From assembly GCA_034401135.1 (NCBI GenBank), contig JAWZSP010000005.1, positions 124,001 through 188,000 of the forward strand: DNA of 64,000 nucleotides, written 5' to 3'. This stretch comes from Volutella citrinella (Eukaryota > Ascomycota > Sordariomycetes > Hypocreales > Nectriaceae). The position numbers and the translations under genes were made by a program. How positions within the stretch are numbered: position 1 is the first letter of the stretch; each line of letters starts with the position of its first letter. This document shows, piece after piece, positions 42,724-59,589 of the stretch. The notes under the pieces are model-generated. The model made no database searches, was not told where the DNA came from, and saw only the letters and a program-made list of their open reading frames with translations.

Positions 42724-45700
42724 ATGCTTCCCACCACAATCATCTTGAGCTTTGTGTTGGCTGCGCCTTCAGTTAACTCTCAGAAGTTCCAGACGAGCAA
42801 GCGACTATCAGTTGTCACTACTACAGTTACCAAGACAGGATGCAATGCGGTCTCATGGGCAAACTCTTTGGCAACCCCGACACCTTCTCTGCCCTCAAGA
42901 AACGACACATTAACTATTACTGTCACAAGTACAATTTGCTCGTCCGATGATCAGTCATTACCAACCCCTAATATCCCGAATAAAATTACTACAACGATGA
43001 GCCACAACATCGTCGAAACGTCAAGTAAGGGCACTAAGACCATTTCCTCTGTATCATCGGCCCATGTGCTATCAACCGACACACAGACGCCTGGTACGTC
43101 CGACGCACTTTCGCTACCCACGCCAATTGCTACAAGCAGAGGTACGAAAGCGACGACGACGGCAATGACGACTATTGAACCACACGTGCCAGTAGATCCA
43201 AGCAGCGCCGTATCTTCAACATCAACGAATGCTACCATGGTACTCGAGGTCACTACCTACGCGTCGGGAACAGAGACTGGGATCTATTCCCGGGTGACGA
43301 ACGAGGCGTACATCCATATCACCGAGCCCACCGTTATTACTACCCAGATCGCAACCACAATCAGCGGCCATTCGGCCACTACCGTTGTTGCTGTGCGCGT
43401 TGGCAAAGGCGGCTTAGCATGGCTGCCCTTGGCAATCCTCAAATTTATCCAAGGTGTGATACAGATCTTTTGGCCTTCCATGGTAATTCCTCTGCCACCT
43501 CCGGTATTGGTCCCTTTCGATCCGGGAGAGGGAGACGGCGGCGAGGACGCCAAGCCAACGAAGGACCGTGACTCGCCTTCAACTGTGCCTTCCCGCGCAA
43601 CTAGTAAGGGGACCCCGAGCAGCACCACAAGTTCTGCTGGGTGTGAGAACACTCAGAACAGCGTTGAATGGGAAACCGCTGGTCCCAACGATTTTGGTCT
43701 TTTTGAGCGTGCCGACCCCGACCCCGGTAGTAGTTGCGAGGTGCCAAGGCAATATATTGTCTATCCCAAGGTCATCGACAACGCCGAAAGCAAAGCCGTT
43801 ATTTACCAGCAGATACTTGCTTATGCCGGCTCGCCTGAAAAAGTTGTGGAGGCCAAGGCCGGACCCTTGGATGTGATTCTCTGGAAGACTATGATCACCC
43901 CAACCCAAGCCTTGGAGCTTCACAAACGTCCCGACGTAAGATACCCTTTTGCCAAATCACTCTGACGAAACTCATCAGTATTTTCAGGTCGGCGCTGTTC
44001 AGCAGTTTCATACCGTGGGTCGTTCAACCCAGGCTCAGACAGATTTTGTGCAATACAGAGCTGAGACAGACATGGTTGTTATTGGACAAGCGCCCGACGT
44101 ACCATTGAAAAACTATAATGGCATGTATGCCTTTGACGAAGAATCTGGTGAAGGTGTTGACCTCTATCTCGTTGATACCTATTTCAACCTGGATAATGAT
44201 GTTTGGCCTATTACTCTGAATTAATGAGGGAAGCTACTAACAGAGAATAGGAATTCAAGCGGGGGAAAAACCACTTTGAGAAGGCCCGGCAGATTGATGC
44301 TTGGCATTCTAAGCCACCTCCAGTAAACACACAGGAGCACCATGGTACATGCATGCTTAGCCGTGCCGTTGGGTATAAATATGGCATCGCCAAGAATGCC
44401 AATGCCATCGCTATTCGTGTCTACAACGGCCCTGTTTCATACGTCCTTGCCGGCTTGGGGAAGGTGTTGGAAGATCATGACCCTGCTAGGGTAGCGGTTC
44501 TGTCCATGTCTATGAGCATCATACGAAAGGAGTCCAAAACTGGAAAACTCCAAAACGTCGATGTCGAAGGCAACGACATTTTCGACCTACTCAGGCACTT
44601 TTTCTGGACTGTCTTCAAGGTTCTCGTCAAATGGAATATAATTCCTTTGGTTTCGGCAGGCAACGGCTCCAAGGCAAGCAGACTGGTGGCTCTCTATTCT
44701 GAGCATGGCTAACATTTACTAGAAACATATTAACAATATTCTTCCCGGAATGCTAGCTCTCCCAAAAAGTAAAAGATACATTCCAGAGCTGATCCTCGTG
44801 GGCTCGTCGAGCAACATAGGAGAAGAACGCAGTCCCTTTTCCAACTATGACGAAGACGCAGACTTACCTCATGTACACGCTCCTGGTGAGGACGTAGGTT
44901 GCGCCTCGTCCGAGGGTGGTGCGAGCTCTATGCGTGCGGTTGGGACTTCTCCGGGTATGTCTCTTCTTTGCCCTGAGGAAAGCAAACTAATCGATTTGTA
45001 GCGACTGCTTCCGCTGGTGGGACAATGGCTTCTATGATTGCCAGGAAGCTGAGAGAAGGGTTACCCTTGAAGACGGTGCAACTTGCAAGGTTGTTTTTTA
45101 TGCTGGAGGCGCACAGGCGAAAAAAGGATGGCCCTTTGGTTATCTGGAATGGCATCAAGCCCGACGATGTTGGCATGGGAGACGATGGTCCATCTTGCCC
45201 TCTTTTCCCCATGAAGAGAGACATCGAATGCAGGCGGCCAACGACTTTACAGACGGTAACGCGGTCAGATGCGACAGCCGCCTCTGCATCCACTGCTAAT
45301 GTTGCCTCTACCGCACTACGCGGTTCTGGCACTAGCAATGATCTAACCCGTACTGTCGATGCGGTCGTCAGTAGTCAAGTAATCTCTACGGCAACCAGCA
45401 ACACTGCTGCGTTGCCAAGTGGTTCTAGCATTGGCGATGCTGCATCCCACACAACGGATTACAGGCCAACTGGGGTTGTGAGCAGCAACACACCGCGAAC
45501 AGTCGCTAGCAGTAGTATAACAGCACAAACTCGGATCAGCTCTGCAGCAACTACTGCCCGAGCACCAACAAATGTTGACCAGCCTGATAAGACGCAGCCT
45601 ACTGAAACACAGCCTGCTCAGGACAAGCCCGATAAAGAGCAGCCGACCGAGAAACCGCCCGCTACGGACAAGCCTGATAGAGAGCAGCCCACGGAGAAAC

Positions 45701-45738
45701 CACCCGCTCAGGACAAGCCACATAGAGGATTCCGCTAG
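42724..45738 (+). CDS. Secreted subtilase (peptidase S8), paralogue of the divergent gene
   Basis: Exons 42724-43935, 43988-44200, 44251-44673, 44723-44954 and 45002-45738 join in frame to 938 codons. A signal peptide (MLPTTIILSFVLAAPSVNS) leads into about 250 Ser/Thr-rich residues, a hydrophobic/Pro segment (WLPLAILKFIQG...), and an I9-like propeptide (RQYIVYPKVIDN). The catalytic residues are Asp in LYLVDTYF, His in EHHGTCMLSRA and Ser in VGTSP|ATASAGG. The catalytic Ser is followed by PATASAGGTMASM instead of the usual xAAPxVAG, so the protein may be less active. Intron 44674-44722 is GC-AG. The C-terminal tail is Ser/Thr-rich and ends with a 15-residue tandem repeat (DKPDxEQPTEKPPAx). It lacks the Cys-rich modules of its paralogue. 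Confidence 0.87.
44674..44722 (+). other. GC-AG intron where the paralogous subtilase has GT-AG
   Basis: The exon ends AACGGCTCCAAG and the intron opens GCAAGC, with a GGCTAAC branch and TTACTAG acceptor. The same position in the minus-strand paralogue (GGGAACGAGGCCAAG) is followed by GTACGT. Confidence 0.82.
45622..45711 (+). repeat. Two copies of a 45-bp coding repeat (15 residues)
   Basis: Units 45622-45666 and 45667-45711 encode DKPDKEQPTEKPPAT and DKPDREQPTEKPPAQ; a third copy breaks off after DKPHRG. A degenerate upstream copy (DKTQPTETQPAQ) is also visible. Charged Pro-rich repeats of this kind often form extended wall-associated tails (inference). Confidence 0.85.
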
Positions 45739-45914: not shown

Positions 45915-47898
45915 TTAATAGAGATCCAACTGAGATTCCTCGTTATTAGTGGGCAACAAGATGTCTTGCGCAATAAACCCATAAGACCACCCGCCAGATA
46001 GCTGAAGCCATATTGATTGAATATCAATGGACCTCGCAGAAGTATCTCCAGTCGCAAATTTCACCGAAGCCTGCAGGTTTGGCAGCGAAATAAGCGGCGG
46101 ATATCCATCCCCGGGCTGTGGTCGGAAATCAGTTCCAGAGTCGTCGTCGTCAGAATAGGAAGCGCCTGGTGCATCTGGACTCAAGATCAGTTCATCGACT
46201 TCGCCCAGATAAGCCGCTTTGTAAAGGTCGTGCATGACACGAAGCGCCACAAGCCACTGTTTAGCAGACTTCCATTCCGCTGCCCAAGACGAGATGAGTT
46301 CACGAATCAGGTCCCAATACATTTTGGCTTCATCCTGCGTCTCCTTGTCCGAGTAAGCCTCGTCTTGAGAGTATTGGAGCCATAGTAGCGTGTTTGCAAT
46401 AATGAGGATTGAAGACGCAACCCATGTAGTTTGGAGTAGGTCCCGATCATGGTGTGGCGGAGCGTTCATCAACATTGCCAGCATTTTGCCGAGACCCAAT
46501 GCATTGGTTACACACACGCCAATGAGTGACTCATCTCGGTGCAGGTACGAGAATCCTGCGGCATCGACGGCATCCACAAGGTTCGTGTACATGGTCAGGT
46601 GCGGAAGGTAGCCTTGATGGGCCACACAAGCGGCGCTTCTCAACAAGAAGTGCATAGCAACAAATGACCTGCCTTGGCCGAGATCGCATTGGTTCCGCAG
46701 ATTGTCTGTACTCCAAGTCAAGCTCGAGTGAAGCGAGGCCGTCCACTTGTTCAGCGCGGTATGACGCAGATGGAATAGACTTCTAGAGTCCGAGGGGGGG
46801 AACTCATCGAACCGGCGTCGCGAGTATACAGCAAAGTCGCAGAGGTCACTCCACAGACACACTGATTTTAGAAGAAAAGGAACTAGCCCGACGTCTGAAG
46901 GGCGTTGACTGCCATCGAGCGCCTCCAACGTGATGCCTCTTGATTCCTCCTGGTATGCCAGAGACACATCGGTGCCGGGGACTGCAATAGCCACAGTCTC
47001 GATGGCGATGGTGCGATGCTTGGCCAGAAAATATGCAAGAGCTCTGTCCATTAACAAGCAAGCCCAAAAGGTGCGACGGCGGACTTCCTGTTCTCGCAGG
47101 CCGTGCTTTTGGTGAAAGTCCTTGTTGAGACGCATAATCTCTGCCATGCGAATGGCAGTTCCAGCAAAGAGCCAATGGCGTGATCCGGAATTTGAGACGA
47201 GCTCGGCCTTGGCAAGTACGAGATTAGCTTGAATATTGGCGACTGCAGCTCGCAAATCTGCTCGTTAGCAATACATGCTCATCATGGTACGTGGATACGG
47301 AAGTCGAGGGCGAACGAACCAGTTGGCCTATCCAACGACTCTTTGGCAAGAGGCCGGGCCATGACAAGATGGCGCTTGGACACTTCTCTACCAGATTCCA
47401 GGCCGAAGAAGCCCTGGGACTGGTACGTATCCAGATAGCGGCCGCAGAGAGCGATGATGGCCGCAGCCAGCACAGGCTCCTGGGCACATTTAGCCTCGAA
47501 GTCTGGCCGATGATCAAACGAGCAGAAATCCACCATGAAGTGCCGCTCGAAAAAGACATCAAGGCACGCCTTCAGGGCATTTCCGGTAGCACTGCCGGCG
47601 GGGGGAGTATCATGGCGGCTAGGGCCGCTTGTGGGCATGGGGACATGTGTCGGGTATCTCGGATCGTCGTCCGACTGGGGCGTTGACTGGTGAATTGTTG
47701 GATAATTGCAAGGCAGATTCTTGGCGGCGCATCTCCTGCAACGTGGACGACCCCCGTCACACTTGGACTTGCGCCGACGGCTAATCCGCTGCTGTCAGTA
47801 TGACTCTCGTCGGGAGAACGCCACCGGGTTGTTTACCAGATATCACAGGCTTGCGGCGTCCTTCCGAGCACTCGTCGCGCTGGGCCGTTGGGTGCCAT
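45915..47898 (-). CDS. Zn(II)2Cys6 transcription factor, probable regulator of the amino-sugar cluster
   Basis: Exons 47837-47898, 47299-47780 and 45915-47257 join in frame to 628 codons. The first intron (47781-47836) splits the zinc cluster and restores ACDICRRRKSKCDGGRPRCRRCAAKNLPCNY, a perfect six-cysteine cluster at residues about 18-48. The second intron is only 41 nt. A fungal_trans-type middle region follows (FFERHFMVDFCSF..., FAGTAIRMAEIMRLNKDF, EVRRRTFWACLLMDR), the classic pattern. The acidic stretch SYSDDDDSGTD near residue 560 may serve in activation. It is divergent from the NagB gene over 427 bp, and that shared promoter carries three CGG-N5-CCG sites. This suggests self-regulation and control of the AnmK/MurQ/NagA/NagB genes (inference). 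Confidence 0.87.
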
Positions 47899-47911
47899 GG
47901 TCGCAGACTGG

Positions 47912-47922
47912 CGGGAAATCCG
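47912..47922. promoter_or_regulatory. CGG-N5-CCG palindrome (CGGGAAATCCG)
   Basis: Lies 13 bp upstream of the regulator's ATG. The spacer differs from the ATAAG type, so this is the weakest candidate of the set. Confidence 0.45.
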
Positions 47923-48050
47923 GGAAATGCTACTTCTTTCCGGTTGATGGTGATTGCTTTCTCCCTACGGCTGCCATGATGAAACTGAAGTCGGTGAACG
48001 GCAAGGCTCGGCTTTTGCGATATTTGGTACGGGCCCCACTCATATTCTGC

Positions 48051-48061
48051 CGGATAAGCCG
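48051..48061. promoter_or_regulatory. CGG-N5-CCG palindrome (CGGATAAGCCG)
   Basis: Sequence CGGATAAGCCGAT, 265 bp upstream of the NagB ATG. The 12-bp core recurs in the NagA promoter. Confidence 0.65.
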
Positions 48062-48112
48062 ATGGCCTGTTTCGCTTCAGTGGGTGGCGTTTTGGTTCAT
48101 TGGCCGATTCAT

Positions 48113-48123
48113 CGGAAAAGCCG
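48113..48123. promoter_or_regulatory. CGG-N5-CCG palindrome (CGGAAAAGCCG)
   Basis: Sequence CGGAAAAGCCGAC, 203 bp upstream of the NagB ATG. Its exact 13-bp reverse complement occurs at 52487-52499. Confidence 0.68.
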
Positions 48124-48325
48124 ACTCCCTGAGACCCACACCCAAAGGGATGCCCATACCGTGCCGTCTATTGGTGCCTTGATCGAGCTGCTATCACTGG
48201 TGGCCCATTGGCTCTCAGGAGGAGAGAGGCCTGGACAAGGTCAGACATTAAAGTACGCACTGCCTCCTCGGCTGTCGTCAGCTAGTCACGGGCTTAGGAG
48301 CAACCTAGTAACGACACAGCCCGCC

Positions 48326-49533
48326 ATGAGATTGATTGTTCGCAACGACGCCCAAGCGGCGGCTGATTACCTCGCCCAGTACATCATCAAGAGGATCAGA
48401 GAATTCGACCCCAGCCCATCTCGGCCATTCGTCCTGGGGCTTCCTACTGGCAGCACCCCAATAGATGTATACAAACTCCTTGTCGAAAGCCACAAGGCAG
48501 GGCACGTAAGTCATGATTTCCCTCCTGTTATTGTTGGATCGGCTGCTTATAGCGTTTCTAGGTATCATTTGAGCATGTCATTACTTTCAACATGGTGAGC
48601 TTTTATTTTTATGACACCCTGTTCTGACTGCAGTCTCCTGACTCTGGTTTATTTAACAGGACGAGTACGTCGGACTACCAAGGGACCACGAGCAGAGCTA
48701 CCACTCCTTCATGTGGCGACACTTCTTCTCACATATCAATGTGCGGCCCGAAAATGTACATATTCTCAATGGCAACGCCCCAGACCTCGAGGCTGAATGT
48801 GCTCGATACGAGGAAGCCATTGTTGCAGCAGGGGGAATCCACCTTTTCCTAGCAGGCATCGGCGAGGACGGTCACATTGCCTTCAACGAGCCGGGGTCTA
48901 GCCTGGCCAGCCGGAGCCGAATCAAGACACTTGCCTATGACACAATCTTGGCCAACTCTCGATTTTTCGGGAACCATCTCGACAGCGTGCCCCGAATGGC
49001 ATTGACAGTGGGAGTGCAGACTATTTTGGACGCGCGAGAAGTGGTCGGCTTGGCACTCGGCGCACGCAAAGCCGTTGCGTTGCAAAAGTGCGTGGAGGGA
49101 GGTGTCAATCACATGTGGACGCTGTCGGCTCTCCAACTGCATCGGCACTCCATGATGGTGGCAGATGAGGATGCCACTCTGGAGCTGCAAGTGAAGACCG
49201 TCAAGGTAAGGAATGCCTCACTGAGCATGATTGCGGTGTCCTTCAAGACTGACTCTTGGCTAGTATTTTAAATCCATCGAAAAGATTGCTCAGCAGAATG
49301 GGGTTGAGCAAGCCATACCCAGGAAGCTGCGGTTGCACACAGCGGAGAGACCAGTCAATGGTGTAGTTGTGTTTGATGAGGCTTCACCTCAACACACGTC
49401 CCCCATTGATCTGCTTCAGCCCTTTCTTTTACGGGCAAACAACACAGTGCTCTCGGCCCCATCATCACGTCCTACGACCCCAGAGCCGGCACTCGATAGC
49501 ATGCAGTCTCGCATTACTGCAAACCAGGCATAG
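48326..49533 (+). CDS. nagB: Glucosamine-6-phosphate deaminase (NagB)
   Basis: This enzyme converts glucosamine-6-P to fructose-6-P and ammonium, the last step of amino-sugar catabolism, in the cytosol. Exons 48326-48505, 48562-48597, 48660-49205 and 49264-49533 join to 343 codons. Characteristic parts are [18 protein letters not shown] (phosphate loop), [21 protein letters not shown] (catalytic Asp in DEY), [17 protein letters not shown] (Asp/His/Glu relay) and LALGARKA. The 36-nt second exon is unusually short but contains the conserved [11 protein letters not shown]. The C-terminal extension of about 60 residues ([12 protein letters not shown]...) is Pro/Ser-rich, common in fungal homologues. 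It is divergent from the zinc-cluster regulator; CGG-N5-CCG sites lie in the shared promoter. The symbol is the bacterial family name. Confidence 0.95.
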
Positions 49534-50020
49534 AGGTTTTAGACAGTTTATATAGATATGGCCATCCATCTGTAGTTCATTAACACACATGAGACCAAAG
49601 GATTCGACATGGATGCCGCACTGCATTGAAATACAAATATCTTGATGGGTGTTACCAAGAAGACTTCCGATCCCTTGTGGGCCACTGCGTTGTCAATTCT
49701 CACTCTCAGCCGGTGGATAACTACGTCCTTTGTTCGAAGGCAAGTCTGCTACCCTTTTTTCCTCTCCGTTCTATAGAATATTCGAAGTTCTGGCATGCAA
49801 AGCAAGAACTTACCGTTAAGTTGCCCATGTGACCAAGATTTCCCGGACGTCCTCAACATATTTGCATCTAGCAGTTACTGCTCCAAACAGTACAATATGT
49901 CCTGGGGACTGTAAAGAGTAGATTAACTAGCATTAAGGCTCATGGATCTCGCTAACTAGACAACCATCGCCTTCTACAACCCTCTCAAGCTCTATATACT
50001 TCCTAGCTGTGTTCACCCTC
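49534..50020. other. Intergenic between convergent NagB and MFS genes
   Basis: Contains the 3' flanks only. No coding or RNA feature is seen. Confidence 0.5.
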
Positions 50021-52074
50021 TTACATCTTGTCAATCGAACCTCTTTTCTCACTCTCAGCCTCAATAACGACTTCACCTTTGTGCTCAATATCGGCTTCTT
50101 GTGTCTCAATAGCCTGGGTTCGCTTATCCTGCCACATGACAACACAGATACAAGCGGCAAGGAGGACAGATACCACGACCATTGTAATATTTCCCTTTTG
50201 GAAACCCTGAGAGCAATACATTAGTGACACGTTTCATTCAACTCGAACGTCGAGGCACTCACGGTTGCCGCATCTGTGACAGGGTAGAGGGTGACGCCCC
50301 AAAAGGAGAAAAGTACCGATGAGGCTCCTGGCTTTCTGTTAGAGGTTGCCTTTGCGTTTTGTAACAGTAATGGCTCACCATTCATCGAGTATAAAATAAT
50401 GGCTCGTGCCGCATCGTCTCCACCACGAGCGAGAACCTTGTTGGCCCAAGTAAACACCACTGGCTGAATCATATAGGCAGTTCCAGCCAAATCTTTTCCA
50501 TGTTAACAACGATTCAGGGCCTTGGAAGTCCAGAAACTTACAATAAGCACCCATCTTAGCGCCAGTACCAACAAACTTCCAACAGAGAAGGACCACACAG
50601 GTGATGATCTGTACACCGCAGGCAATGAACCCAAAGGGAGCAATCTTGCCAGTAGCATCGATGGCGACCGATGTGCTCAGTGTAAGTACGATACCTGTCT
50701 CATTAGCATCTTGCGCGGTGTCAAAAGAAAAATATATGGAGATCTTACCAATGGCAGTGATTCCGAGAGGATACGTGTTGTTTTCTGAAACCGTGAACAA
50801 CTTGGACGCCTTCATCCAAAGCACCATGCATGTCTGAGTAGAGTAAGCTTCTAAAGCTCCACCAAGAACCCAAAACATGTTGAAGATCCAGCTACACGGC
50901 CAGCCAGTTAGCGAAACTCAGGTTCTGGTATAGTTTGGCAACTCACAAGTTCGGCGTGAAAATGACTCGCTTGACCAGAGACAGGCCGATTTTGTGACCC
51001 TCTGGGTTTTTGGGCGGTAGACGGGACAACGCCAGTTCTCTCTCATGAGGCTTGAGGTAGAATGCTGTTGTAGTCTCAGGGAGATCGGGGAAGAAGAAAT
51101 AGCCAAACGCAGCGACGGGAAGAGTCACGATGCCACAGATGATGAAAACCTGTGCCAAGCAAGTCAGTCTGGGATAATAATACGGCAAGAGACCAGGCAC
51201 TTACCCAGCGCCAACCAGGAAGGCCTGCCAACCCATTCATCGTTCTCCAAATTGCCGTCATCAAAATGCCTGCAATCTGTCATTTAGAAGCCATTCAGAG
51301 TCGCCAGTGATGTGAGTTTCTTACCGCCAAACATGGTGCCAGCCATTCCCGAGGCCTGGAAAAGGCCGACTCGCTTTCCGACTTCAGGGCCCTTGTACCA
51401 ACTTCCGATTATGTACTGAGTACCGCTGTATGTGGATGCTTCCGCCATGCCCTGGAAAAATCGAACGGCTGCAAGGTGCGAGAAGGAGCTGCAAGCAGCA
51501 CATGTCATGGTGAGCAGAGCCCACACGACTGTCATCAGGGGAAACCAGATTCGAGGCGCAACCTTCTGGATGATGATACCGTGGGGCACTTGTCCGAGGA
51601 TATCTATGTCCTGTTAGTCCCCGAATCAATGATGCGTAGAGACGTGAAACTGACAGCCCAAGGCCAGCATGGTGACCAGCAGGTTGTACTCATTGCCCGT
51701 GAGGCCGATGTCTTCCTTCATTCCAGACACATAGGCATTCCCAAGAACGGCTCGGTCTGCGCATAATATTCCGTTAGTCTCGTGATGTTGGTGGCGGTCG
51801 ATCAAAGTTGGGTTCAAATACCGAGGTAGTTGAAGAAAAAGGCGACACAGCAGTATGTCTGTGGTTGGGAAGATTAGCAACAAGTACAGACACCATTGAC
51901 ATTCGAGTACATGACTTACCAAAATGAAGAAGTCGATTTTTTGCAGCAACTATCGACTCACGTTAGCCTTGCCACGGCCTGTGTTGACGACCAGAGACAG
52001 ACCTTGCGCTCCTCGGGCGAATCTGGTGCCTCGCCCCAGACGGCAACGCGGAGTTTGTGGAGCCTTGCACCCAT
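50021..52074 (-). CDS. MFS transporter of the anion:cation symporter (ACS) family, candidate amino-sugar importer
   Basis: This is a 12-segment MFS carrier related to the Dal5/Fen2/Liz1/Vht1 group of fungal acid and vitamin symporters. The start MGARLHKLRVAVWG joins after EERK (intron with acceptor gtcgatag) to LLQKIDFFILTYC. Further visible parts are NYLDRAVLGNAYVSGM, YILGQVPHGIIIQKVAPRIWFP, RFFQGMAEASTYSGTQYIIGSWYK, LPGWRWVFIICGI and GYFFFPDLPETT, all conserved in ACS carriers. At least eight short introns split the gene; one near 51655 joins LALG to YILGQ. The cytosolic tail is acidic (EADIEHKGEVVIEAESEK). It is flanked by NagB and MurQ genes and shares a promoter with MurQ that contains a cluster-type palindrome, so it may import (anhydro)MurNAc, a lactyl-ether amino sugar with a carboxylate (inference). 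Exact exon borders were not all fixed. Confidence 0.86.
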
Positions 52075-52711
52075 TGCGTGGCAACAGCAGATATTGAATG
52101 AGTGAGTGAGATGGAGCGAGTATTGTCTCCTTGCGCGGTGATGATGGTGAAGGGTCAAAGGGCGCGAGGACCCGGGGGGTTTTATGCCAGGTCCAAGGAA
52201 GTGAGCAAAAGGACTGAGCGCTACCGCATTGAGCTGGCCCCACACACTCTTATCTGGCGTCTGGGGAAACCCCAGTATCTCCCGTCCCCAATCTCCCCGT
52301 ACAGAACCCCAGAAAACCAGTCAAGATGCAGCCAGTTATCTCAACGCCTGGTTGGAGCCGTTCTCTTGCTTGGGTCGCGTGAGGGGAAAATTTGCTAGTG
52401 GATCGAGGTCGAGCCATGGCGTCGGAGACGACCAGTGGCGGATCGGGATAGCCAGTGCCGGGAACACTAGAGATTCCCGTCAAACCGTCGGCTTTTCCGC
52501 TCGGGATATCGGGCATGACGGATGTGCCCTGCCGACAAGTGACCGCAAATGATGTCAGGTCCAGTCTCATCTCCTTTGCCCCTGTGCTTAGTGCCGCTCT
52601 TGCGTAATCTCAGCCGCATTCTTCAAATCTTCTTCAAGGCCCTCTTATCAAAACACTGCTCAAACCCTGGGATAACTATCAGAAGGATCTTTGACCTCAG
52701 CGCCGACAATC
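52075..52711. promoter_or_regulatory. Divergent promoter of the ACS transporter and MurQ genes
   Basis: A 637-bp region with one CGG-N5-CCG site at 52489-52499. A short inverted repeat ggggaaacccc lies near 52262. No exon is recognised. Confidence 0.6.
52489..52499. promoter_or_regulatory. CGG-N5-CCG palindrome (CGGCTTTTCCG)
   Basis: The 13-mer GTCGGCTTTTCCG (52487-52499) is the exact reverse complement of the site at 48113-48125. It lies 213 bp before the MurQ ATG and about 415 bp from the transporter ATG. Confidence 0.66.
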
Positions 52712-54048
52712 ATGCTTCTTCTACCTGTTGGCCATGTGCCGGCTCGCGAGCCTGATTGCAATGGTGACCACGACGGCGGCCTTGTGAACGGTAGTGGCCC
52801 CGCCCCAGAGACTGGCGACCTCAACGTCTCAAAGTTGGATCTGGCGTCCCTGCAAACTGAGCAGAAGAACCCACGGACAAGGGATATTGACCAACTGTCC
52901 ACTCTCGACTTGTGTCGTAAGATGCCTCCCTTGGCGCTGTGGCTATACAATGTGTTGCTGACTTTTATTCTAGGTGTTATCAATGAGGAAGATGCCACTG
53001 TCGCCAAAGCAGTACAAACCTGCTTGCCGCAAATAGCAGAAGCAATTGACGTGATAGTCGACCGCCTTTCCGCTGGTGGTCGCGTTGTGTACACAGGTGC
53101 TGGGACAAGTGGAAGGTAAGAGGCCTCACAACTTCGGTTCCGCAAACAAACAGTATTTGACATCAAGATGTAGGTTGGGTATCCTTGATGCATCCGAAAT
53201 GTGAGTCATCTTTCTTACCTTGACACCCTGGCACCGCTGACCACATAGTATTACAGTCCGCCAACGTTTTCTGCAAACCCTGGGCAGTTCATTGGCTTAA
53301 TCGCAGGCGGGGAGTATGCCATTCGGAATGCTGTGGAGGGCGCCGAGGACTCGGAACAGATGGGGGCCTCTGATCTTGCCAACATCAGCCCGCCACTTGG
53401 GAAGAACGACGTTCTCTTGGGGATTGCCTCGTCGGGGAGAACACCATATGTGCTCGGAGGCCTGAAGCATGGCCGTTCTGTTGGAGCTGCCACCGTGGGC
53501 TTGGCATGTGTCAAGCCTAGTGCTCTTAGCGACATTTGCGACGTCGCCATTGAATGTGTGACTGGCCCTGAGGTTGTCACGGGAAGCACAAGGCTCAAAG
53601 CAGGTACTGCGACCAAGATGGTAACGAAGAACCCGCTTCCGCCCCTGAATCTACGGACCAAGACTGACCCCAGCACTGGCAGATACTGAACATGCTGTCT
53701 ACCGGATCCCAGATTCGCATCGGCAAAACCTTTGGCAACCTGGTAGGGACATTACTCCATCAGCAATCTGATACTTTCAAGACTGCTAATTCGCACCTTG
53801 TACAGATGGTGGATTTACAAATGTCGAATAAAAAACTTCGAGATAGAGCTCATCGGGTAATCCGTTCCGTGGCTCCATCGTCACCAAAGTTTGATATGCA
53901 AGACGAAACAGTCCTCGACAGGATCCTAGACGACTGTCAAGGGAATGTGAAGCTAGGTATCGTGGTAGCGACCTTGGGAATCTCCCCTCAAGATGCTCGA
54001 GCGAGATTAGACGCCGCAAATGGCTCCCTGAAGCGTGCATTGGAATAA
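52712..54048 (+). CDS. murQ: N-acetylmuramic acid-6-phosphate etherase (MurQ-like, SIS domain)
   Basis: This enzyme cleaves the D-lactyl ether of MurNAc-6-P, giving GlcNAc-6-P and D-lactate. Exons 52712-52916, 52974-53115, 53174-53200, 53257-53620, 53683-53742 and 53806-54048 join in frame to 346 codons. The full MurQ signature is present: [84 protein letters not shown] (catalytic Glu region), LLGIASSGRTPYVLGGL, GPEVVTGSTRLKAGTATKM and [27 protein letters not shown]. The C-terminal helical domain is complete (VVATLGISPQDARARLDAANG). About 40 extra residues precede the bacterial-type start. The tiny 27-nt exon 3 encodes part of the substrate loop. Relatives are also called glucokinase-regulator-like, but the EGAED and SGRTPYV motifs favour a true etherase. 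Confidence 0.93.
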
Positions 54049-54339
54049 ACTTGATAGACAAGGCTATAACTTGGCAGGCCACCATGAAAATTTAGAGAAA
54101 AAGGGTGTTTGTTTGCTTTCATAAATTGGTAATGAATACACAGATGAATACAAACATCAACATCGAAACTGTTCTATTACGGCGTCTCTCTGCTCACTCT
54201 GCAAGGCCCGCACGGTGCTTCTCATGATATCGGGCAATCTAGCCTCTGGTCGCTAGTCTACTTAGCCGCAACGCTAGCCCGCCAGTCCCAAAGGGTCGGT
54301 CTAGCGAAGGCCAAAACAAAATTACCGGTATCGTCGCAT

Positions 54340-54350
54340 CGGATTTGCCG
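54340..54350. promoter_or_regulatory. CGG-N5-CCG palindrome (CGGATTTGCCG)
   Basis: Sequence ATCGGATTTGCCGAT, a near-perfect 15-bp inverted repeat 366 bp upstream of the AnmK ATG. Confidence 0.6.
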
Positions 54351-54411
54351 ATGTGGCGTAGAGGATTTCGCAGCTTGAGGACCCGCTTATTCCCCTCATC
54401 ACGCGTGTCGT

Positions 54412-54422
54412 CGGGTTATCCG
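54412..54422. promoter_or_regulatory. CGG-N5-CCG palindrome (CGGGTTATCCG)
   Basis: The reverse complement reads CGGATAACCCGAC, one base from CGGATAAGCCGAC. It lies 294 bp upstream of the AnmK ATG. Confidence 0.6.
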
Positions 54423-54705
54423 CTGCACTCGAACCAGAGTCCGAGGCTAGCACAGCTCCGATCTACGATTTGTCACTAAATGTGCCGCAAGTGACGCGCT
54501 CCCTCTTTCAGCAGCGCACCACAGCAAAGAAGTAGGTATATCTTTTCATTTACCACTGCGGCCCCTTCATCGCAACGCTGCTCTAGACCGTCGTTCTCCG
54601 TCAACACACGGCAAAGGGAACTCTTCAGGTTTCAGTGAAAGCTATATCCGAACTCATTACCAAAATACAGCACATTCCTAGTCGGGGACTTGACATAGAG
54701 AAACA

Positions 54706-56158
54706 ATGGTTACTCTCAATGTACTGGGTTTAAACTGTGGCACAAGCATCGATGGTATGTGTGCCTATCCTCTTTTTGTGAAGAAATGTCTGTTTTGCGA
54801 GCAGCTGGCTCATTACGCCTTAGGAATCGATGTTGCACACTGTCGCATATCATCAGTCGAATCATCAAATGATGTGCGAATTGAACTACTTGGATACACG
54901 GAAGTTGCAGTGGACCCCGATCTTCGTCGTCAGGTCTTGCGTCTCTGCCGGCCTAACCAGGATGAAGCTGCTACTACTATGGCCGAAGTCTGTGACCTCA
55001 ACTTTGCTTTGGGACGTGAATTCTCGCGTGCCATTGAACAGAGTGGCTTTGATCTCGATCAAGTGGATGTGATTGCAAGCCATGGCCAAACACTCTGGCA
55101 CCAGCCGCTCGGCGACAACAGGTCTACGTTACAGATGGCAGAGCCGGCTGTCATCTCTCGCCGGACTGGAAGGTAGGCAAGACGGGTCCCTCAGACGTTT
55201 TACACGCTGACCAGATATCTAGAACTGTTATTAGCAACTTTCGTGTTGCTGAACTTGCAGCAGGGAGACAAGGTGCTCCCCTGGCCGGTTTCTTCGAAGC
55301 TGGCCTTCTTTCAGACCCGGAAAAGACAATCATCAGTCAAAATATTGGAGGCATAGGTAAGCAGGCGCATTCCTTGTGAGCTTGTCCGAGATACTCATCA
55401 AGTCTCCAGGAAATGCAACAGTGCTTGTGGCCAACGACACATCCTCGTCCACGAAGCCTGGAGCGGTTTATCAAGCTTTTGATACAGGCCCAGGCAACGT
55501 CTTCATAGATGCCGCCATGCGCATTCTCACAGACGGGGCTCAGCACTTTGACAGAGACGGTCTTCTCGGTTCCAAGGGAGAGGTACACATTGATCACGAA
55601 CTTGTCAACGAGTACCTGGAATCAGAGCCTTATTTCCAGGTCCAGCCTCCAAAGACAACAGGTCGAGAGCTATTTTCCGACGATGTGGCTCGCCAGCTGG
55701 TAACCAAGATGCATGCCAAGAAACTGTCGTTGGAGGCCATCGTTGCCACCATCACACGAATCACAGCAGAGTCCATTGCCCGCGCATACGAACAGTTTGT
55801 TCTGCCAAAGCTGAAGCAAGGAAGCAATATTGATGAGATATACATCTGCGGCGGAGGAGCTTTCAATCCTAATATCCTAAAACATCTTCAGGCTCGCTTT
55901 CCCCAGTCCAGGGTCCTGCAGCTGAGTGATGCACCTATTAAAGTCGACCCGAGTGCGAAGGAGGCAGTGCTGTTCGCGTTGTTAGGTTTCTTGGGAGTTT
56001 GTGGTCGAACGGTGCCGGTGGCTGCTGACGCCGAGACAACAGTCCCAGCTGTCATGGGAGTGATAACTCCTGGCACAAACTATCGCCAGATCATGCAGAC
56101 AGTGACACAGGACAAGGAGTTCGCCAAAAGTGAACCTCTGGGCCGGGTCCTCATGTAG
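54706..56158 (+). CDS. anmK: 1,6-anhydro-N-acetylmuramic acid kinase (AnmK-like)
   Basis: This ATP-dependent kinase opens the 1,6-anhydro ring of anhydro-MurNAc and yields MurNAc-6-P, the substrate of the adjacent MurQ. Exons 54706-54754, 54824-55172, 55223-55356 and 55410-56158 join in frame to 426 codons. Family motifs in order: GLNCGTSIDGIDVAHCRI (phosphate loop), IASHGQTLWHQP, QMAEPAVISRRTG, FRVAELAAGRQGAPLAGFFE, QNIGGIGNATVL, AFDTGPGNVFIDAAM (catalytic Asp region), and CGGGAFNPNI near the C-terminus. The first element has CGTSIDG where bacteria have SGTSLDG. The C-terminus is about 50 residues longer than in E. coli. It carries no targeting signal, so a cytosolic location is likely. It sits between MurQ and NagA on the same strand. 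Confidence 0.94.
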
Positions 56159-56574
56159 AACAGTCAGTTTTGGATTCAATACATTCCGTTCAAGCAGCAG
56201 CCTCATCTACTACATCAACTGTGACAAAACTATGTGCATTCTTTGCGTACCGATGAAAGCATAGATAACAGAGCATTGCTGCTGCTACAACGCATTCAGT
56301 GTCCGAGGTGCAGATGTGTAGCAGTGAAGGTGTCGCGCTATCCAACTACATCCCAGTAGATTTTAGAGCTCGCACTGAAGATCCTACTGCACAACATTTT
56401 ACCGTCGCACGGAATATTCTGCCTCAAGTCTTGATGGGTGGGTGCAGCATTCATCGGGCATGGATCGGACCATCCGTCTGTCGGAACAGCATCCCGCCTC
56501 AACTTCAACGACGAGGGAAACGGAGCAACAAGCCCAAGATGCGCCCCATAATTGCCCGCCCACACTCCAAACTG

Positions 56575-56585
56575 CGGATAAGCCG
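56575..56585. promoter_or_regulatory. CGG-N5-CCG palindrome (CGGATAAGCCG)
   Basis: Sequence CGGATAAGCCGAC, identical over 12 bp to the site at 48051. It lies 328 bp upstream of the NagA ATG. Confidence 0.68.
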
Positions 56586-56595
56586 ACGAATGCAC

Positions 56596-56615
56596 CGGGA
56601 AACCCGGCCGTTCCG
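56596..56615. promoter_or_regulatory. Two overlapping CGG-N5-CCG matches
   Basis: CGGGAAACCCG (56596-56606) and CGGCCGTTCCG (56605-56615) overlap by two bases, ten bases after the site at 56575. Spacers differ from ATAAG, so affinity may differ. Confidence 0.45.
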
Positions 56616-56902
56616 ATCAAGTTCCGGCCTCTAGCAAAAGCCACATGCAAGGACAGCTGGGTCTGAGTGGTCATTGCCGTACCCTGACAATAGATTCTAG
56701 TAGCGAGTCGATAGCCAAGGATTTACCCTCGTAGGGAATCTTACAGCGGTCTAGACAATAAGAGCAAGATGCTGGGACGCCTTGATTGTGACTTAAAATT
56801 CGTGAAGCTAATGAGCGCCGTTGGGACGAAGCTTGTCGCAGCACCAACTATCTTGAGGCCCAGATCTTCTACTGTTCGACTTTCCGATCTACTTGTATCG
56901 CA

Positions 56903-58333
56903 ATGCCTGGCACCATCTCAGAGACCGGAAGAGGCATCACAAAGTTCACCAATTGCCGCCTCGCTCATGGGGATGACCTTGTGACGGAGGACCTTTGGGT
57001 CAGTTCCGAGACTGGAAAAATCCTGTCAAGCCAGGCCACCTTTTTCGATTCAGGTGCTATTCCTGATGAGGTTATTGATCTGGGAGGGCGCATCGTCTCT
57101 CCAGGCCTGATTGATGTGCAACTCAATGGTGCATTTGGCTTCAACTTTTCCACATTGCCAGATGACATTGCATCATACCCGAAGAGCCTAGCAGATGTAA
57201 ACAAACGCCTGCTCAGCACTGGCGTTACTTCCTATCTGCCGACGCTTACCACGCAGAAGCCTGAGCTGTATCAAAAGGTAGGTTCCTTGTTGAAGTGAAG
57301 AGAGGGAGGGTTATGTGTTGCTTCACGGCTGACAGAAACTCTAGGTGTTGCCGTATCTCGGCCCAGACAAGTCTGAATTGTCGAGCAATGGAGCCGAGTC
57401 CCTAGGCGCCCATGTTGAAGGACCTTTCCTTAGCCCTACCAAGAATGGCATCCATGACATCAACGTGATGCAGCGTGCCAATACCATGACAGATATCCAG
57501 AACTGTTATGGTGCGGAAAACCTGGGTGATCTGGCGAGAGAAACAACCGGTCCTTCTGGCAACATCGCTAAAATCACATTGGCTCCTGAAATCGCCAACA
57601 TGACAGAGCTTATCCCTGAACTTCGACGTCGTGGTATTGTGTGCTCTATCGGACACTCCGAGGCTACATATGAAGAAGCGTCGGCTGCTGTTTCTGCGGG
57701 AGCAACAATGATTACCCATTTATTCAATGCTATGAGGCCTCTTCATCATCGGAACCCAGGAATCTTTGGGGTTCTTGGCGTTTCTGGATCACAGCCAAAG
57801 CCATACTTTGGAATTATCGCCGATGGTATCCATCTTCATCCGACAGCTATCAAAATAGCCTTCAACACTCACCCGGATGGGTTTATCCTAGTAACGGATG
57901 CTATGCACCTCGTTGGCCTCCCAGATGGCGTTCACCCTTGGACAAACGGACAATTGGAGAGTAATATTGTCAAAGTCGGGCCACATCTCTACCTGGAAGG
58001 GACTGACAAGATTGCGGGGAGGTGAGTGCAAGTACACACAAATCCTGCTCAGATACACTAACAAGACATAAAAGCTCCATCACTCTAGTTGAGTGTGTTA
58101 ATAACTTTCTTGCTTGGACTGGTGCTGGTATTGGGAAAGCTCTCAGGACCGTCACATCAACACCAGCATCCATGCTCGGAGTCCAACATTCCAAGGGGAC
58201 CCTGCATCCAGGAGCAGACGCAGACTTGGTCATATTCTCTGAAAACAAAACCGATAACGGAGGAGTTCAGCTTGTGATTGATGAGGTATGGAAGCGAGGC
58301 TGCCGAGCTTATTCCAGCACTCTGGTAGTTTGA
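56903..58333 (+). CDS. nagA: N-acetylglucosamine-6-phosphate deacetylase (NagA)
   Basis: This metal-dependent amidohydrolase converts GlcNAc-6-P to GlcN-6-P and acetate, between MurQ and NagB in the pathway. Exons 56903-57277, 57345-58021 and 58075-58333 join to 436 codons. Visible residues are the metal ligand Glu in HVEGPFLSPTKNGIH, His in SIGHSEATYEE, His in THLFNAMRPLHHRNPG, the substrate contact DGIHLHP, and the catalytic Asp in LVTDAMHLVGLPDG. The small beta domain is formed by both ends (VIDLGGRIVSPGLIDVQLNG at the front, GADADLVIFSENKT at the back). The third exon restores KIAGSSITLVECVNNFLAW. It lies downstream of AnmK on the same strand; the promoter has three CGG-N5-CCG sites. Confidence 0.95.
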
Positions 58334-58455: not shown

Positions 58456-59589
58456 TTATCCTAGCACTACAGATGAATGCGGCTGGTCTTGCTTGATAGA
58501 TGCAGGCATGACCGGCTCCTCCCATGAGGTTACTTGTCGCCGCCTGGCCTGGTCGACCATTACGCGAAACAACTCGGGCAGCGGCCAGTCAGCCGCCCTG
58601 GCCATTGTGGGAACGACGCTCTGGAGGGCAAATGAGCAATACGGACCGGCCTCGAGGAACCAGGGCCGGCCGGTGGGGTCAATGCGGAAGTCGAACAAAC
58701 TATAGTCCCGACAGCCCATGGCGCGGTGGCTGCGACGAGCTGCTTCCCAGACGGGGGCGACGGCCGGGTCGTCCGTGTCGACAATCCAAGTGGAGCGGTC
58801 GGCCGATTGAGACTGGGACTGGGACTGGGGCTTTTGCATGGCTGCCTTGACCAGGTCTCCGGCGTCATTGCGGATGAGCTTGTCGGCCAGACTGCGGATG
58901 GGGTGCGTCGACGGGTCGAGGGCGTACTCCTCCAAGGGCAGACAATGCAGCTCGCCCTCAATCTCGAGGACGCCGCAGCGCACCTCTCGGCCGAGCTCGA
59001 TGTAGTCCTCGACCAGGACCCGGTCCGACACGGCAAAGGCGGCCGCCAGAGCGTCGGGGAAGCCGCCGGCGTCGCGGACCAGCGTAACACCGAGCGAGTT
59101 GTCGCTGTCGACGGCCTTGACCACGACCGGCGGCGACAGACTAGGCACATCGCCCGGGTACAGCAGCTCTGCATCAGGCACGTCGACGCCGGCTGCGGCC
59201 ACAATGGCGCGAGTGTGGGCCTTGTCGGCGGCGAGGGCCATGACGGCGCCCGTGTTGCCCACGTACGGCAGCCCCAGCAGGTCGAGCAGCGACCGGTAGC
59301 TGGTCATGCCGGGCAGACAGAACATCTGTGGCACCACAACGTCTGGCCGCATGGTCGCCAGGTGCTGGACGGCTTCCGTGGGGGGCCAGACCTTGGCCGA
59401 TGCCAGGGCCTCCTTGCTGGGGTCGGTGGGGAATCTCCAGCTGCCGCCAGGGGAGATAAATGCCAGCCGCATGGTGTAGCGTGCAGGGTCCGCCGTGGCC
59501 TCCCAGCAGTCGCGGGCGTAGAGCAGCGAGACGTCGGCCAGGAACGAGTCCGTGGGCGAGCCTGTGAGATGCAGTATTGTCAGTGGCAT
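58456..59589 (-). CDS. D-alanine-D-alanine ligase-like ATP-grasp protein
   Basis: This is an intronless, GC-rich gene of 377 codons for an ATP-grasp ligase related to bacterial Ddl. An N-terminal pre-ATP-grasp part has LPGMTSYRSLLDLLGLPYVGN followed by ALAADKAHTRAIVAAAGVDVPD. The ATP-grasp core has PPVVVKAVDSDNSLGVTLV and the glutamate-rich LVEDYIELGREVRCGVLEIEGE. The metal-binding end reads DFRIDPTGRPWFLEAGPYCSF, where the usual Ddl sequence is E-x-N followed by a PG-type loop. The acidic residue is kept but the asparagine position is not, so activity or substrate may differ. A QSQSQSQS run lies near residue 255. It is convergent with NagA. Its upstream region lacks a CGG-N5-CCG site. Bacterial transfer is possible but unproven. 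Confidence 0.82.
   Translation of the reverse strand: MPLTILHLTGSPTDSFLADVSLLYARDCWEATADPARYTMRLAFISPGGSWRFPTDPSKEALASAKVWPPTEAVQHLATMRPDVVVPQMFCLPGMTSYRSLLDLLGLPYVGNTGAVMALAADKAHTRAIVAAAGVDVPDAELLYPGDVPSLSPPVVVKAVDSDNSLGVTLVRDAGGFPDALAAAFAVSDRVLVEDYIELGREVRCGVLEIEGELHCLPLEEYALDPSTHPIRSLADKLIRNDAGDLVKAAMQKPQSQSQSQSADRSTWIVDTDDPAVAPVWEAARRSHRAMGCRDYSLFDFRIDPTGRPWFLEAGPYCSFALQSVVPTMARAADWPLPELFRVMVDQARRRQVTSWEEPVMPASIKQDQPHSSVVLG

What the first reader, a model, noticed from the sequence alone, without database searches (positions are those of the whole stretch)
45915..58333. A fungal gene cluster for complete catabolism of anhydro-N-acetylmuramic acid
Within 12.4 kb lie AnmK, MurQ, NagA and NagB, an ACS-type MFS carrier and a Zn2Cys6 regulator. 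By family knowledge the four enzymes form a closed path: anhydro-MurNAc to MurNAc-6-P, to GlcNAc-6-P plus D-lactate, to GlcN-6-P plus acetate, to fructose-6-P plus ammonium. All four show their catalytic motifs and good intron structure, so they are resident fungal genes, not contamination. Fungi do not make peptidoglycan, so this implies scavenging of bacterial wall fragments (bacterivory, mycophagy, soil necromass). The known fungal GlcNAc cluster has a GlcNAc kinase and an Ndt80-type regulator instead. I do not know of a described fungal muramic-acid regulon, but I cannot search.
Basis: partly seen in the sequence, partly recalled or inferred. Interest (0 to 1): 0.93.

Follow-up and report, generated by a model that had tools for sequence, protein, structure and literature searches.

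The report
Fungal gene cluster eating bacterial wall sugar
This fungus carries a compact, apparently co-regulated set of genes that should import and fully break down a sugar found only in bacterial cell walls, which suggests that some fungi feed on bacterial wall debris by a route described so far in bacteria.

Summary
Window 45915-58333 holds six intron-bearing fungal genes: Zn2Cys6 regulator, NagB, ACS-type MFS carrier, MurQ, AnmK-family kinase and NagA. MurQ, NagB and NagA pass NCBI equivalog cut-offs; the kinase does not, and its nearest solved structures are levoglucosan kinases. A separate standard GlcNAc cluster exists, so these NagA and NagB are extra copies. All four promoter-bearing gaps carry CGG-N5-CCG sites (10 seen, 0.55 expected); the convergent gap has none. 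I read it as an anhydro-MurNAc catabolic regulon that combines bacterial-type MurQ and kinase with fungal-type NagA and NagB. No enzyme, transport or expression was tested; linkage of NagA, NagB and the regulator in other fungi was not examined; several fungi list kinase or carrier without a listed MurQ. Ten literature searches listed no such fungal cluster; a 2026 ant paper calls murQ transfer previously unreported.

The parts
45915..47898 (-). Zn2Cys6 transcription factor (zinc cluster CDICRRRKSKC...CRRCAAKNLPC plus fungal TF domain), probable pathway regulator; exons 47898-47837, 47780-~47299, ~47257-45915
   Evidence: PF00172 and PF04082 over cut-off; models; second intron boundary uncertain
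47899..48325 (.). Divergent promoter regulator/NagB with three CGG-N5-CCG sites (47912, 48051, 48113); the last two match CGGAWWWGCCGA
48326..49533 (+). NagB, glucosamine-6-phosphate deaminase, 342 aa; exons 48326-48505, 48562-48594, 48660-49205, 49264-49533
   Evidence: TIGR00502 389 bits, cut-off 236.9; model
50021..52074 (-). ACS-type MFS carrier, 482 aa; exons 52074-52003, 51949-51920, 51858-51822, 51756-51655, 51603-51325, 51269-51205, 51149-50947, 50891-50749, 50694-50542, 50492-50379, 50327 (or 50324)-50263, 50206-50021
   Evidence: PF07690; the only PDB hits at E <= 0.01 are two D-galactonate transporter entries; orthologs share contigs with the kinase in eight fungi; splice choices near the 3' end uncertain
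52075..52711 (.). Divergent promoter carrier/MurQ with one CGG-N5-CCG site (52489; CGGAAAAGCCGA on the - strand, 52488-52499)
52712..54048 (+). [quoted passage not shown] exons 52712-52916, 52974-53115, 53174-53200, 53257-53620, 53683-53742, 53806-54048
   Evidence: TIGR00274 377.7 bits, cut-off 302; 289 bits to H. influenzae MurQ structure 4lzj; only copy found in the genome (one further weak SIS match, 23 bits)
54049..54705 (.). MurQ-to-kinase promoter with two CGG-N5-CCG sites (54340 CGGATTTGCCGA; 54412)
54706..56158 (+). AnmK-family kinase (proposed anhydro-MurNAc kinase), 426 or 422 aa; exons 54706-54754, 54824-55172, 55223 (or 55235)-55356, 55410-56158
   Evidence: PF03702 222 bits; sister clade to levoglucosan kinases; keeps bacterial AnmK H, T and Q after the SHGQT motif
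56159..56902 (.). Kinase-to-NagA promoter with four CGG-N5-CCG sites (56466, 56575 CGGATAAGCCGA, 56596, 56605)
56903..58333 (+). NagA, N-acetylglucosamine-6-phosphate deacetylase, 436 aa; exons 56903-57277, 57345-58021, 58075-58333
   Evidence: TIGR00221 245.2 bits, cut-off 225.65; model

Best explanation
This is a dedicated catabolic gene cluster for 1,6-anhydro-N-acetylmuramic acid (anhydro-MurNAc), a breakdown product of bacterial peptidoglycan. The ACS-type carrier imports the acidic sugar as an anion (inferred). The AnmK-family kinase opens the anhydro ring and phosphorylates it to MurNAc-6-phosphate (inferred from clade, residues and linkage). MurQ removes D-lactate to give GlcNAc-6-phosphate (inferred from a score above the equivalog cut-off). 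Cluster-specific NagA and NagB convert this to GlcN-6-phosphate plus acetate and then fructose-6-phosphate plus ammonium (same basis). The Zn2Cys6 protein controls all six genes through CGG-N5-CCG sites (sites shown, binding inferred). MurQ and the kinase are of bacterial origin (inferred); NagA and NagB look like duplicates of the fungus's own GlcNAc genes.
For: MurQ, NagB and NagA pass equivalog cut-offs. MurQ is single-copy, while NagA has a second copy (65% identical) and NagB two more (78% and 66% in the main exon) elsewhere. One copy of each lies in a standard GlcNAc cluster with hexokinase, Ndt80 and GH3, so the window copies are extra. The kinase clade is separate from levoglucosan kinases and keeps H109, T118 and Q120 as in bacterial AnmK, where levoglucosan kinases have L, A and T. 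The carrier's only PDB relatives move D-galactonate, an acid sugar. CGG-N5-CCG: 10 sites in 2465 bp against 0.55 expected, 0 of 200 first-order simulations as high, in all four promoter-bearing gaps and none in the convergent NagB/carrier gap. CGGAWWWGCCGA: 5 of 32 genome copies lie here. 32 of the 80 kept bacterial kinase loci have murQ in the flank. The genome also encodes a secreted-looking SLT-domain protein and GH24-type matches at two places.
Against: The kinase scores higher against levoglucosan kinase than against AnmK structures and misses every NCBI AnmK equivalog cut-off. Of the diagnostic columns, 9 group the window clade with bacterial AnmK but 14 group it with levoglucosan kinase and 4 are its own. 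Malbranchea, Talaromyces, Pseudogymnoascus, Onygenales, Emmonsiellopsis, Coniochaeta and Lachnellula appear in the kinase-clade or carrier lists but not in the listed 120 MurQ hits, and Sporothrix, Niveomyces and Cutaneotrichosporon appear in the MurQ list only; lists were cut at 120. Listed partners lie on different contigs in Mariannaea (MurQ against kinase and carrier), Saitozyma (MurQ against carrier) and Coniochaeta (kinase against carrier). No Amidase_2 and no GH25 were found, so how free anhydro-MurNAc arises is open. Outside the window the motif is about as frequent as a reversed control (27 against 26), and the flanks examined show no wall hydrolases. No expression or enzyme data.
Confidence: 0.77

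Rival explanations
1. The kinase is a levoglucosan (1,6-anhydroglucose) kinase and its neighbourhood with MurQ is incidental, or the locus serves several anhydro-sugars.
For: Nearest solved structures are levoglucosan kinases (322 bits against 144). 14 of the 27 diagnostic columns are levoglucosan-kinase-like, 9 AnmK-like. A fungal protein annotated AnmK (Rhodotorula toruloides) showed levoglucosan kinase activity in yeast; the other five tested were close to the empty-vector control (PMC9476349, abstract, found passages and section 14). No levoglucosan-kinase-type copy was found elsewhere in the genome: the C3 copy is a different subfamily. Some fungi list the kinase or carrier without a listed MurQ.
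Against: Sister clade, not inside the levoglucosan kinase clade; keeps bacterial H, T and Q after SHGQT; linked to MurQ in several Ascomycota and one basidiomycete; the carrier resembles an organic-anion carrier while levoglucosan is neutral; the promoter motif ties it to MurQ, NagA and NagB.
Confidence: 0.12
2. The cluster handles MurNAc or MurNAc-6-phosphate more broadly (lysozyme products), with the kinase only one entry; a hexokinase would phosphorylate free MurNAc.
For: GH24-type matches at two places, which would yield reducing MurNAc ends; an unnamed MurQ in the fungal MurQ set, P0063, has a C-terminal tail that looks to me like the start of a BadF/BadG-type kinase, though Pfam did not confirm it.
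Against: No BcrAD_BadFG match above cut-off in this genome (one at 28.7 bits, cut-off 31.5) and no MurNAc kinase in the cluster.
Confidence: 0.15
3. Detoxification or signalling: the cluster clears muropeptide sugars that would otherwise trigger or disturb the fungus, rather than feeding on them.
For: Muropeptides are known signals to fungi (recalled); the catabolic end product alone does not distinguish nutrition from clearance.
Against: A linked carrier and a complete route to fructose-6-phosphate suggest feeding.
Confidence: 0.06

Closest known systems
Bacterial anhydro-MurNAc route (AnmK, MurQ, NagA, NagB of peptidoglycan recycling)
   Same: Same four reactions in the same order (recalled); murQ lies in the flank of 32 of the 80 kept bacterial kinase loci
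   Different: Here eukaryotic, intron-bearing, with an MFS carrier of fungal type, a Zn2Cys6 regulator and fungal-type NagA and NagB
Fungal GlcNAc catabolic cluster (hxk3, dac1, dam1, nag3, ron1; Trichoderma reesei, PMC4950302, passages read)
   Same: Shares the NagA and NagB reactions, feeds fructose-6-phosphate and has a linked regulator
   Different: No hexokinase, Ndt80 or GH3 among the six genes here; has MurQ and the AnmK-type kinase; the standard cluster is separate, on C1. The terms muramic, peptidoglycan and etherase do not occur in that paper's main text
Levoglucosan kinase (Lipomyces starkeyi, PDB 4yh5, 4zxz)
   Same: Same PF03702 family; joint fungal clade; 14 of 27 diagnostic columns
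   Different: Separate sister clade; three residues after the SHGQT motif are AnmK-like here and changed in levoglucosan kinase
murQ acquired by Camponotini ants (PMC13320244, passages read)
   Same: Bacterial murQ in a eukaryote
   Different: Single gene, read by its authors as possible antibacterial defence and called previously unreported; here a whole pathway in a fungus
Entodinium caudatum transcripts for MurNAc-6-phosphate etherase and an anhydro-GlcNAc kinase (PMC6925433, passages read)
   Same: A eukaryote proposed to use peptidoglycan sugars
   Different: Transcriptome of a ciliate; no gene cluster or regulator in the passages read

Membership tests
MurQ (MurNAc-6-phosphate etherase) | Score above NCBI equivalog TIGR00274 over the full length | tested here: met
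   377.7 bits, cut-off 302, residues 47-346, profile 1-291 of 291
MurQ (MurNAc-6-phosphate etherase) | Single-SIS enzyme rather than the two-SIS glucokinase regulatory protein | tested here: met
   346 aa, 289 bits to MurQ structure 4lzj against 82.5 for the best regulatory protein
MurQ (MurNAc-6-phosphate etherase) | Release of D-lactate from MurNAc-6-phosphate | not testable with these tools
   needs an enzyme assay
AnmK (anhydro-MurNAc kinase) | PF03702 with the DTGPGN aspartate motif | tested here: met
   222 bits; FDTGPGN present; role of the Asp recalled
AnmK (anhydro-MurNAc kinase) | Score above an NCBI AnmK equivalog cut-off | tested here: not met
   351 bits against 387 for the best of 14 models, none passed; so described as AnmK-family, proposed to work like AnmK, not filed as an NCBI equivalog
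AnmK (anhydro-MurNAc kinase) | Substrate preference for anhydro-MurNAc | tested here: inconclusive
   keeps H109, T118, Q120 as in bacterial AnmK, but 14 other columns are levoglucosan-kinase-like; MurQ linkage; no assay. Part of the bacterial set was picked by the pattern SHGQT[LV]WH, which includes that His
Levoglucosan kinase | Falls inside the clade of Lipomyces levoglucosan kinase | tested here: not met
   sister clade: 32 window-type rows 92, 12 levoglucosan-kinase-type rows 100, both together 100 (SH-aLRT, unrooted)
NagA and NagB | Scores above TIGR00221 and TIGR00502 | tested here: met
   245.2 (225.65) and 389 (236.9) bits
Fungal GlcNAc (Ron1) cluster | GlcNAc hexokinase and Ndt80-type regulator in the cluster | tested here: not met
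   neither is among the six modelled genes, and the Ndt80 matches of the genome lie on C1 and C4, not on C5; both are present at C1
Zn2Cys6-controlled regulon | Linked Zn2Cys6 protein and a shared CGG-type inverted repeat in each promoter | tested here: met
   PF00172; CGG-N5-CCG in four of four promoter-bearing gaps, none in the convergent gap; binding not testable here

The most novel reading that the evidence does not exclude
A complete muramic-acid catabolic regulon in a eukaryote: a bacterial kinase and murQ (possibly as a linked pair) were captured by fungi, joined to duplicated fungal GlcNAc genes, an anion carrier and a dedicated Zn2Cys6 switch, kept patchily across Ascomycota and Basidiomycota, and used to feed on bacterial wall debris released partly by the fungus's own secreted SLT-type and GH24-type enzymes.
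Probability: 0.45. Interest if true: 0.88.

Novelty: new variant of a known kind. Interest (0 to 1): 0.83.

Why it matters
Muramic acid is the marker sugar of bacterial necromass, a major soil carbon pool, and its breakdown is usually attributed to bacteria (recalled). A fungal pathway with its own carrier and regulator would make fungal consumption of bacterial walls genetically testable (one regulator deletion, one etherase deletion), and could explain part of how fungi such as the Fusarium solani group, Clonostachys and Dactylonectria live with and on bacteria. It would also be a clear case of a metabolic cluster built from bacterial and duplicated fungal parts, and it indicates that murQ in eukaryotes is not unique to ants.

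Tried and rejected
Contamination: rejected, all four enzymes carry spliceable introns and the locus sits in a 4.57-Mb contig. Glucokinase regulatory protein instead of MurQ: rejected. The locus being the standard GlcNAc cluster: rejected, that cluster is on C1. Second AnmK-family gene on C3 as a redundant copy: rejected, it is a distant subfamily on a long branch, 37% identical at best to the rows of that tree. The D-Ala-D-Ala-ligase-like gene at 58456-59589 as a seventh member: not adopted; no CGG-N5-CCG site lies in the gap to NagA or in the 4 kb upstream of its start, though two lie inside its frame. Wider regulon: of 32 genome copies of CGGAWWWGCCGA, 5 are in the cluster, one lies inside the open frame of the Ndt80 gene on C1, 20 were fetched with 3-kb flanks and 6 were not read. 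7 of the 20 lie outside any 100-aa open frame; Pfam on 20 flanking frames from 11 of the 20 loci found no wall hydrolase. GH25 and Amidase_2 searches found nothing. Requiring the named fungal MurQs alone to be one clade was rejected because eight unnamed sequences fall among them; with those eight the 44-row set has support 99. Among 39 spacing and orientation classes, CGG-N6-CGG was also raised (6 against 1.26, 0 of 200); I do not interpret it. The CGGAWWWGCCGA form was read off these gaps by eye before it was counted, so its window count is not an independent test; the spacing scan was run afterwards on the same gaps and is not fully independent either. The papers on levoglucosan kinase and AnmK structures that I tried by identifier were not held, so which residues touch the sugar is not confirmed. 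Literature: ten searches; the rows listed (lists were capped) show no fungal MurNAc cluster. PMC9159588 names a murQ gene in Monascus purpureus among chitin pathway genes, without comment in the passage read.


Full report
Setting. The cluster therefore sits about 170 kb from the contig end. The best protein matches are mostly to Hypocreales such as the Fusarium solani group and Dactylonectria, at 72-82% identity for MurQ, kinase and carrier; the single best kinase match is Malbranchea (Onygenales) at 76%. No near-identical match was listed, so the species is not identified.

What is there. Six genes were modelled by hand from GT-AG introns: regulator (-), NagB (+), carrier (-), MurQ (+), AnmK-family kinase (+), NagA (+). 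The regulator's second intron, one kinase acceptor and the carrier's last introns have alternatives. Pfam and NCBIfam support each assignment, except that the kinase stays below every AnmK equivalog cut-off (351 against 387 bits for the best). MurQ aligns with Haemophilus MurQ over residues 43-345, including the glutamates of the DASE-PPTF and VEGAED motifs, which I recall as catalytic.

Which substrate does the kinase take? Its nearest solved structures are Lipomyces levoglucosan kinases (322 bits) and only then bacterial AnmK (144 bits). A tree of 84 rows (32 window-type fungal; 12 levoglucosan-kinase-type out of 59 in the wider tree; the first 40 of the 77 bacterial sequences extracted from 80 loci, after dropping six long-branched ones) puts all fungal rows on one side (100), split into the levoglucosan kinase clade (100) and the window clade (92). 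In the wider alignment of 170 rows, 9 columns group the window clade with bacterial AnmK against levoglucosan kinase, 14 group it with levoglucosan kinase against bacteria, and 4 are its own. The many shared fungal columns are expected from common ancestry. Three of the nine AnmK-like columns cluster after the SHGQT motif: H109, T118 and Q120 (97-100% in the window clade, 91-99% in bacteria), where levoglucosan kinases carry L, A and T (92-97%). The bacterial set was partly chosen by a pattern that includes the His; Thr and Gln were not in the pattern, and Pseudomonas AnmK, taken from the PDB, has all three. The structure papers I tried were not held, so I do not claim which residues touch the sugar.

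Linkage in other fungi. No fungal genomes can be searched here, so I compared species, locus tags and contig lengths in three protein lists, each cut at 120 rows. MurQ and the kinase share a contig in seven genomes: F. nematophilum (tags 013621 and 013622), F. lateritium, Dactylonectria macrodidyma, Cephalotrichum gorgonifer, Clonostachys rosea, Penicillium riverlandense and the basidiomycete Naematelia encephala. They are merged into one gene model in F. decemcellulare (P0131) and Paramyrothecium foliicola (P0145). The carrier shares the contig with the kinase in eight: F. lateritium, Dactylonectria, Cephalotrichum, Naematelia, F. oligoseptatum, Malbranchea, Clonostachys rhizophaga and Mariannaea. 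Against this, Mariannaea's listed MurQ is on another contig than its kinase and carrier, Saitozyma's MurQ on another than its carrier, and Coniochaeta's kinase on another than its carrier. Malbranchea, Talaromyces, Pseudogymnoascus, Onygenales, Emmonsiellopsis, Coniochaeta and Lachnellula appear with kinase or carrier but not in the MurQ list, while Sporothrix, Niveomyces and Cutaneotrichosporon appear only in the MurQ list. Because of the cut-offs I cannot say whether these are real absences. Linkage of NagA, NagB and the regulator in other fungi was not tested.

Extra copies. MurQ is the only one found in the genome (one further weak SIS match). NagB has two other copies, 78% and 66% identical in the main exon, and NagA one, 65%. 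One copy of each lies with a hexokinase, an Ndt80-type regulator and a GH3 gene on C1, the arrangement of the Trichoderma GlcNAc cluster (PMC4950302, passages read). The window's NagA and NagB are far closer to these than to the bacterial NagA (30-34%, three loci) and NagB (46%, one locus) seen, so they look like fungal duplicates. Fungal MurQs and fungal kinases each form one side of a branch against bacteria; the trees are unrooted, and transfer from bacteria is inferred from the families' distribution. 32 of the 80 kept bacterial kinase loci have murQ in the flank, so the two could have come together. Most of the kept kinase loci carry Chloroflexota-type names, but the named bacteria nearest in the MurQ list are mainly Planctomycetes, so a common donor is not shown.

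Regulation. Reading the gaps between genes I saw a repeated CGGAWWWGCCGA. It occurs five times in the window, all in the four promoter-bearing gaps, against 0.06 expected, and 32 times in the genome against 26 for the reversed pattern. A scan of 39 spacing and orientation classes in the 2465 bp of these gaps found CGG-N5-CCG ten times against 0.55 expected (0 of 200 first-order simulations as high): three, one, two and four times in the four gaps; one other class, CGG-N6-CGG, was also raised. The fifth gap, between the converging NagB and carrier genes, has no CGG-N5-CCG site. Such inverted CGG repeats are typical of Zn2Cys6 proteins (recalled). None lies between NagA and the next gene, which suggests NagA as the edge. 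Outside the window the long motif is near background; 20 of the other sites were fetched, and the flanking frames scanned from 11 of them gave no wall hydrolase.

Upstream supply. The genome holds one SLT-domain protein with a signal-peptide-like start and GH24-type matches at two places, but no GH25 or Amidase_2 match and no BadF-type kinase above cut-off. SLT enzymes produce 1,6-anhydro ends (recalled), so the fungus might make its own substrate or take what bacteria release. FAD-oxidase_C proteins, the family of D-lactate dehydrogenases (recalled), give 15 matches; which one would use D-lactate is not resolved. The carrier's only PDB relatives at E <= 0.01 are two D-galactonate transporter entries, which fits an acidic sugar better than neutral levoglucosan.

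Novelty. Ten literature searches in an open-access library listed no fungal muramic-acid cluster; lists were capped and most subscription papers are not held. A 2026 ant genome paper (PMC13320244, passages read) states that transfer of murQ had not been reported before and may be unique to Camponotini. A ciliate transcriptome (PMC6925433, passages read) reports MurNAc-6-phosphate etherase and an anhydro-GlcNAc kinase. A Monascus genome paper names a murQ gene (PMC9159588, one passage). The chemistry is known; a regulated fungal cluster for it is, as far as I could check, new.

Verdict. Confirmed observation, well-supported interpretation, untested biochemistry.

Noticed in passing
58456-59589 (-): Intronless gene for an ATP-grasp protein resembling D-alanine--D-alanine ligase (PF07478 60 bits; far below NCBI cut-offs), in the most GC-rich stretch of the window, tail-to-tail with NagA and without the cluster's promoter motif; possibly another gene of bacterial type.
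   Followed up: partly
43839-45738 (+): A gene that reads by eye like a subtilisin-type protease (no Pfam match for the two pieces scanned) with a proline-rich tail of 45-bp tandem repeats (45577-45719, 3.2 copies).
   Followed up: partly
L028 8653-9918 (-) (own genome C3): A second AnmK-family gene of a different, distant subfamily (GLNSGSSFDG, GYDGQTIYQEP) with a Zn2Cys6 gene nearby; function unknown.
   Followed up: partly
P0063 (protein of an unnamed source, 359 aa): A MurQ that falls in the fungal MurQ set and continues into what looks by eye like the start of a BadF/BadG-type sugar kinase (not confirmed by Pfam), suggesting a MurNAc kinase-etherase fusion in an unnamed organism.
   Followed up: partly
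L142 1168-1986 (+) (own genome C1:134569): Small secreted-looking protein with a transglycosylase SLT domain in a fungus; a candidate maker of anhydro-muropeptides.
   Followed up: partly
L026 about 9173 (own genome C1:1618173): One further CGGAAAAGCCGA copy lies inside the open frame of the Ndt80-type regulator gene of the GlcNAc cluster; chance or cross-talk cannot be told.
   Followed up: no
L131 around 3000 (own genome C4:4862193): A CGGAWWWGCCGA site between an aldo/keto reductase and a glutathionylspermidine-synthase-type ATP-grasp gene.
   Followed up: no
P0131 and P0145: Gene models of 722 and 634 aa that join MurQ and the kinase in Fusarium decemcellulare and Paramyrothecium foliicola; merged predictions or true fusions.
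   Followed up: no
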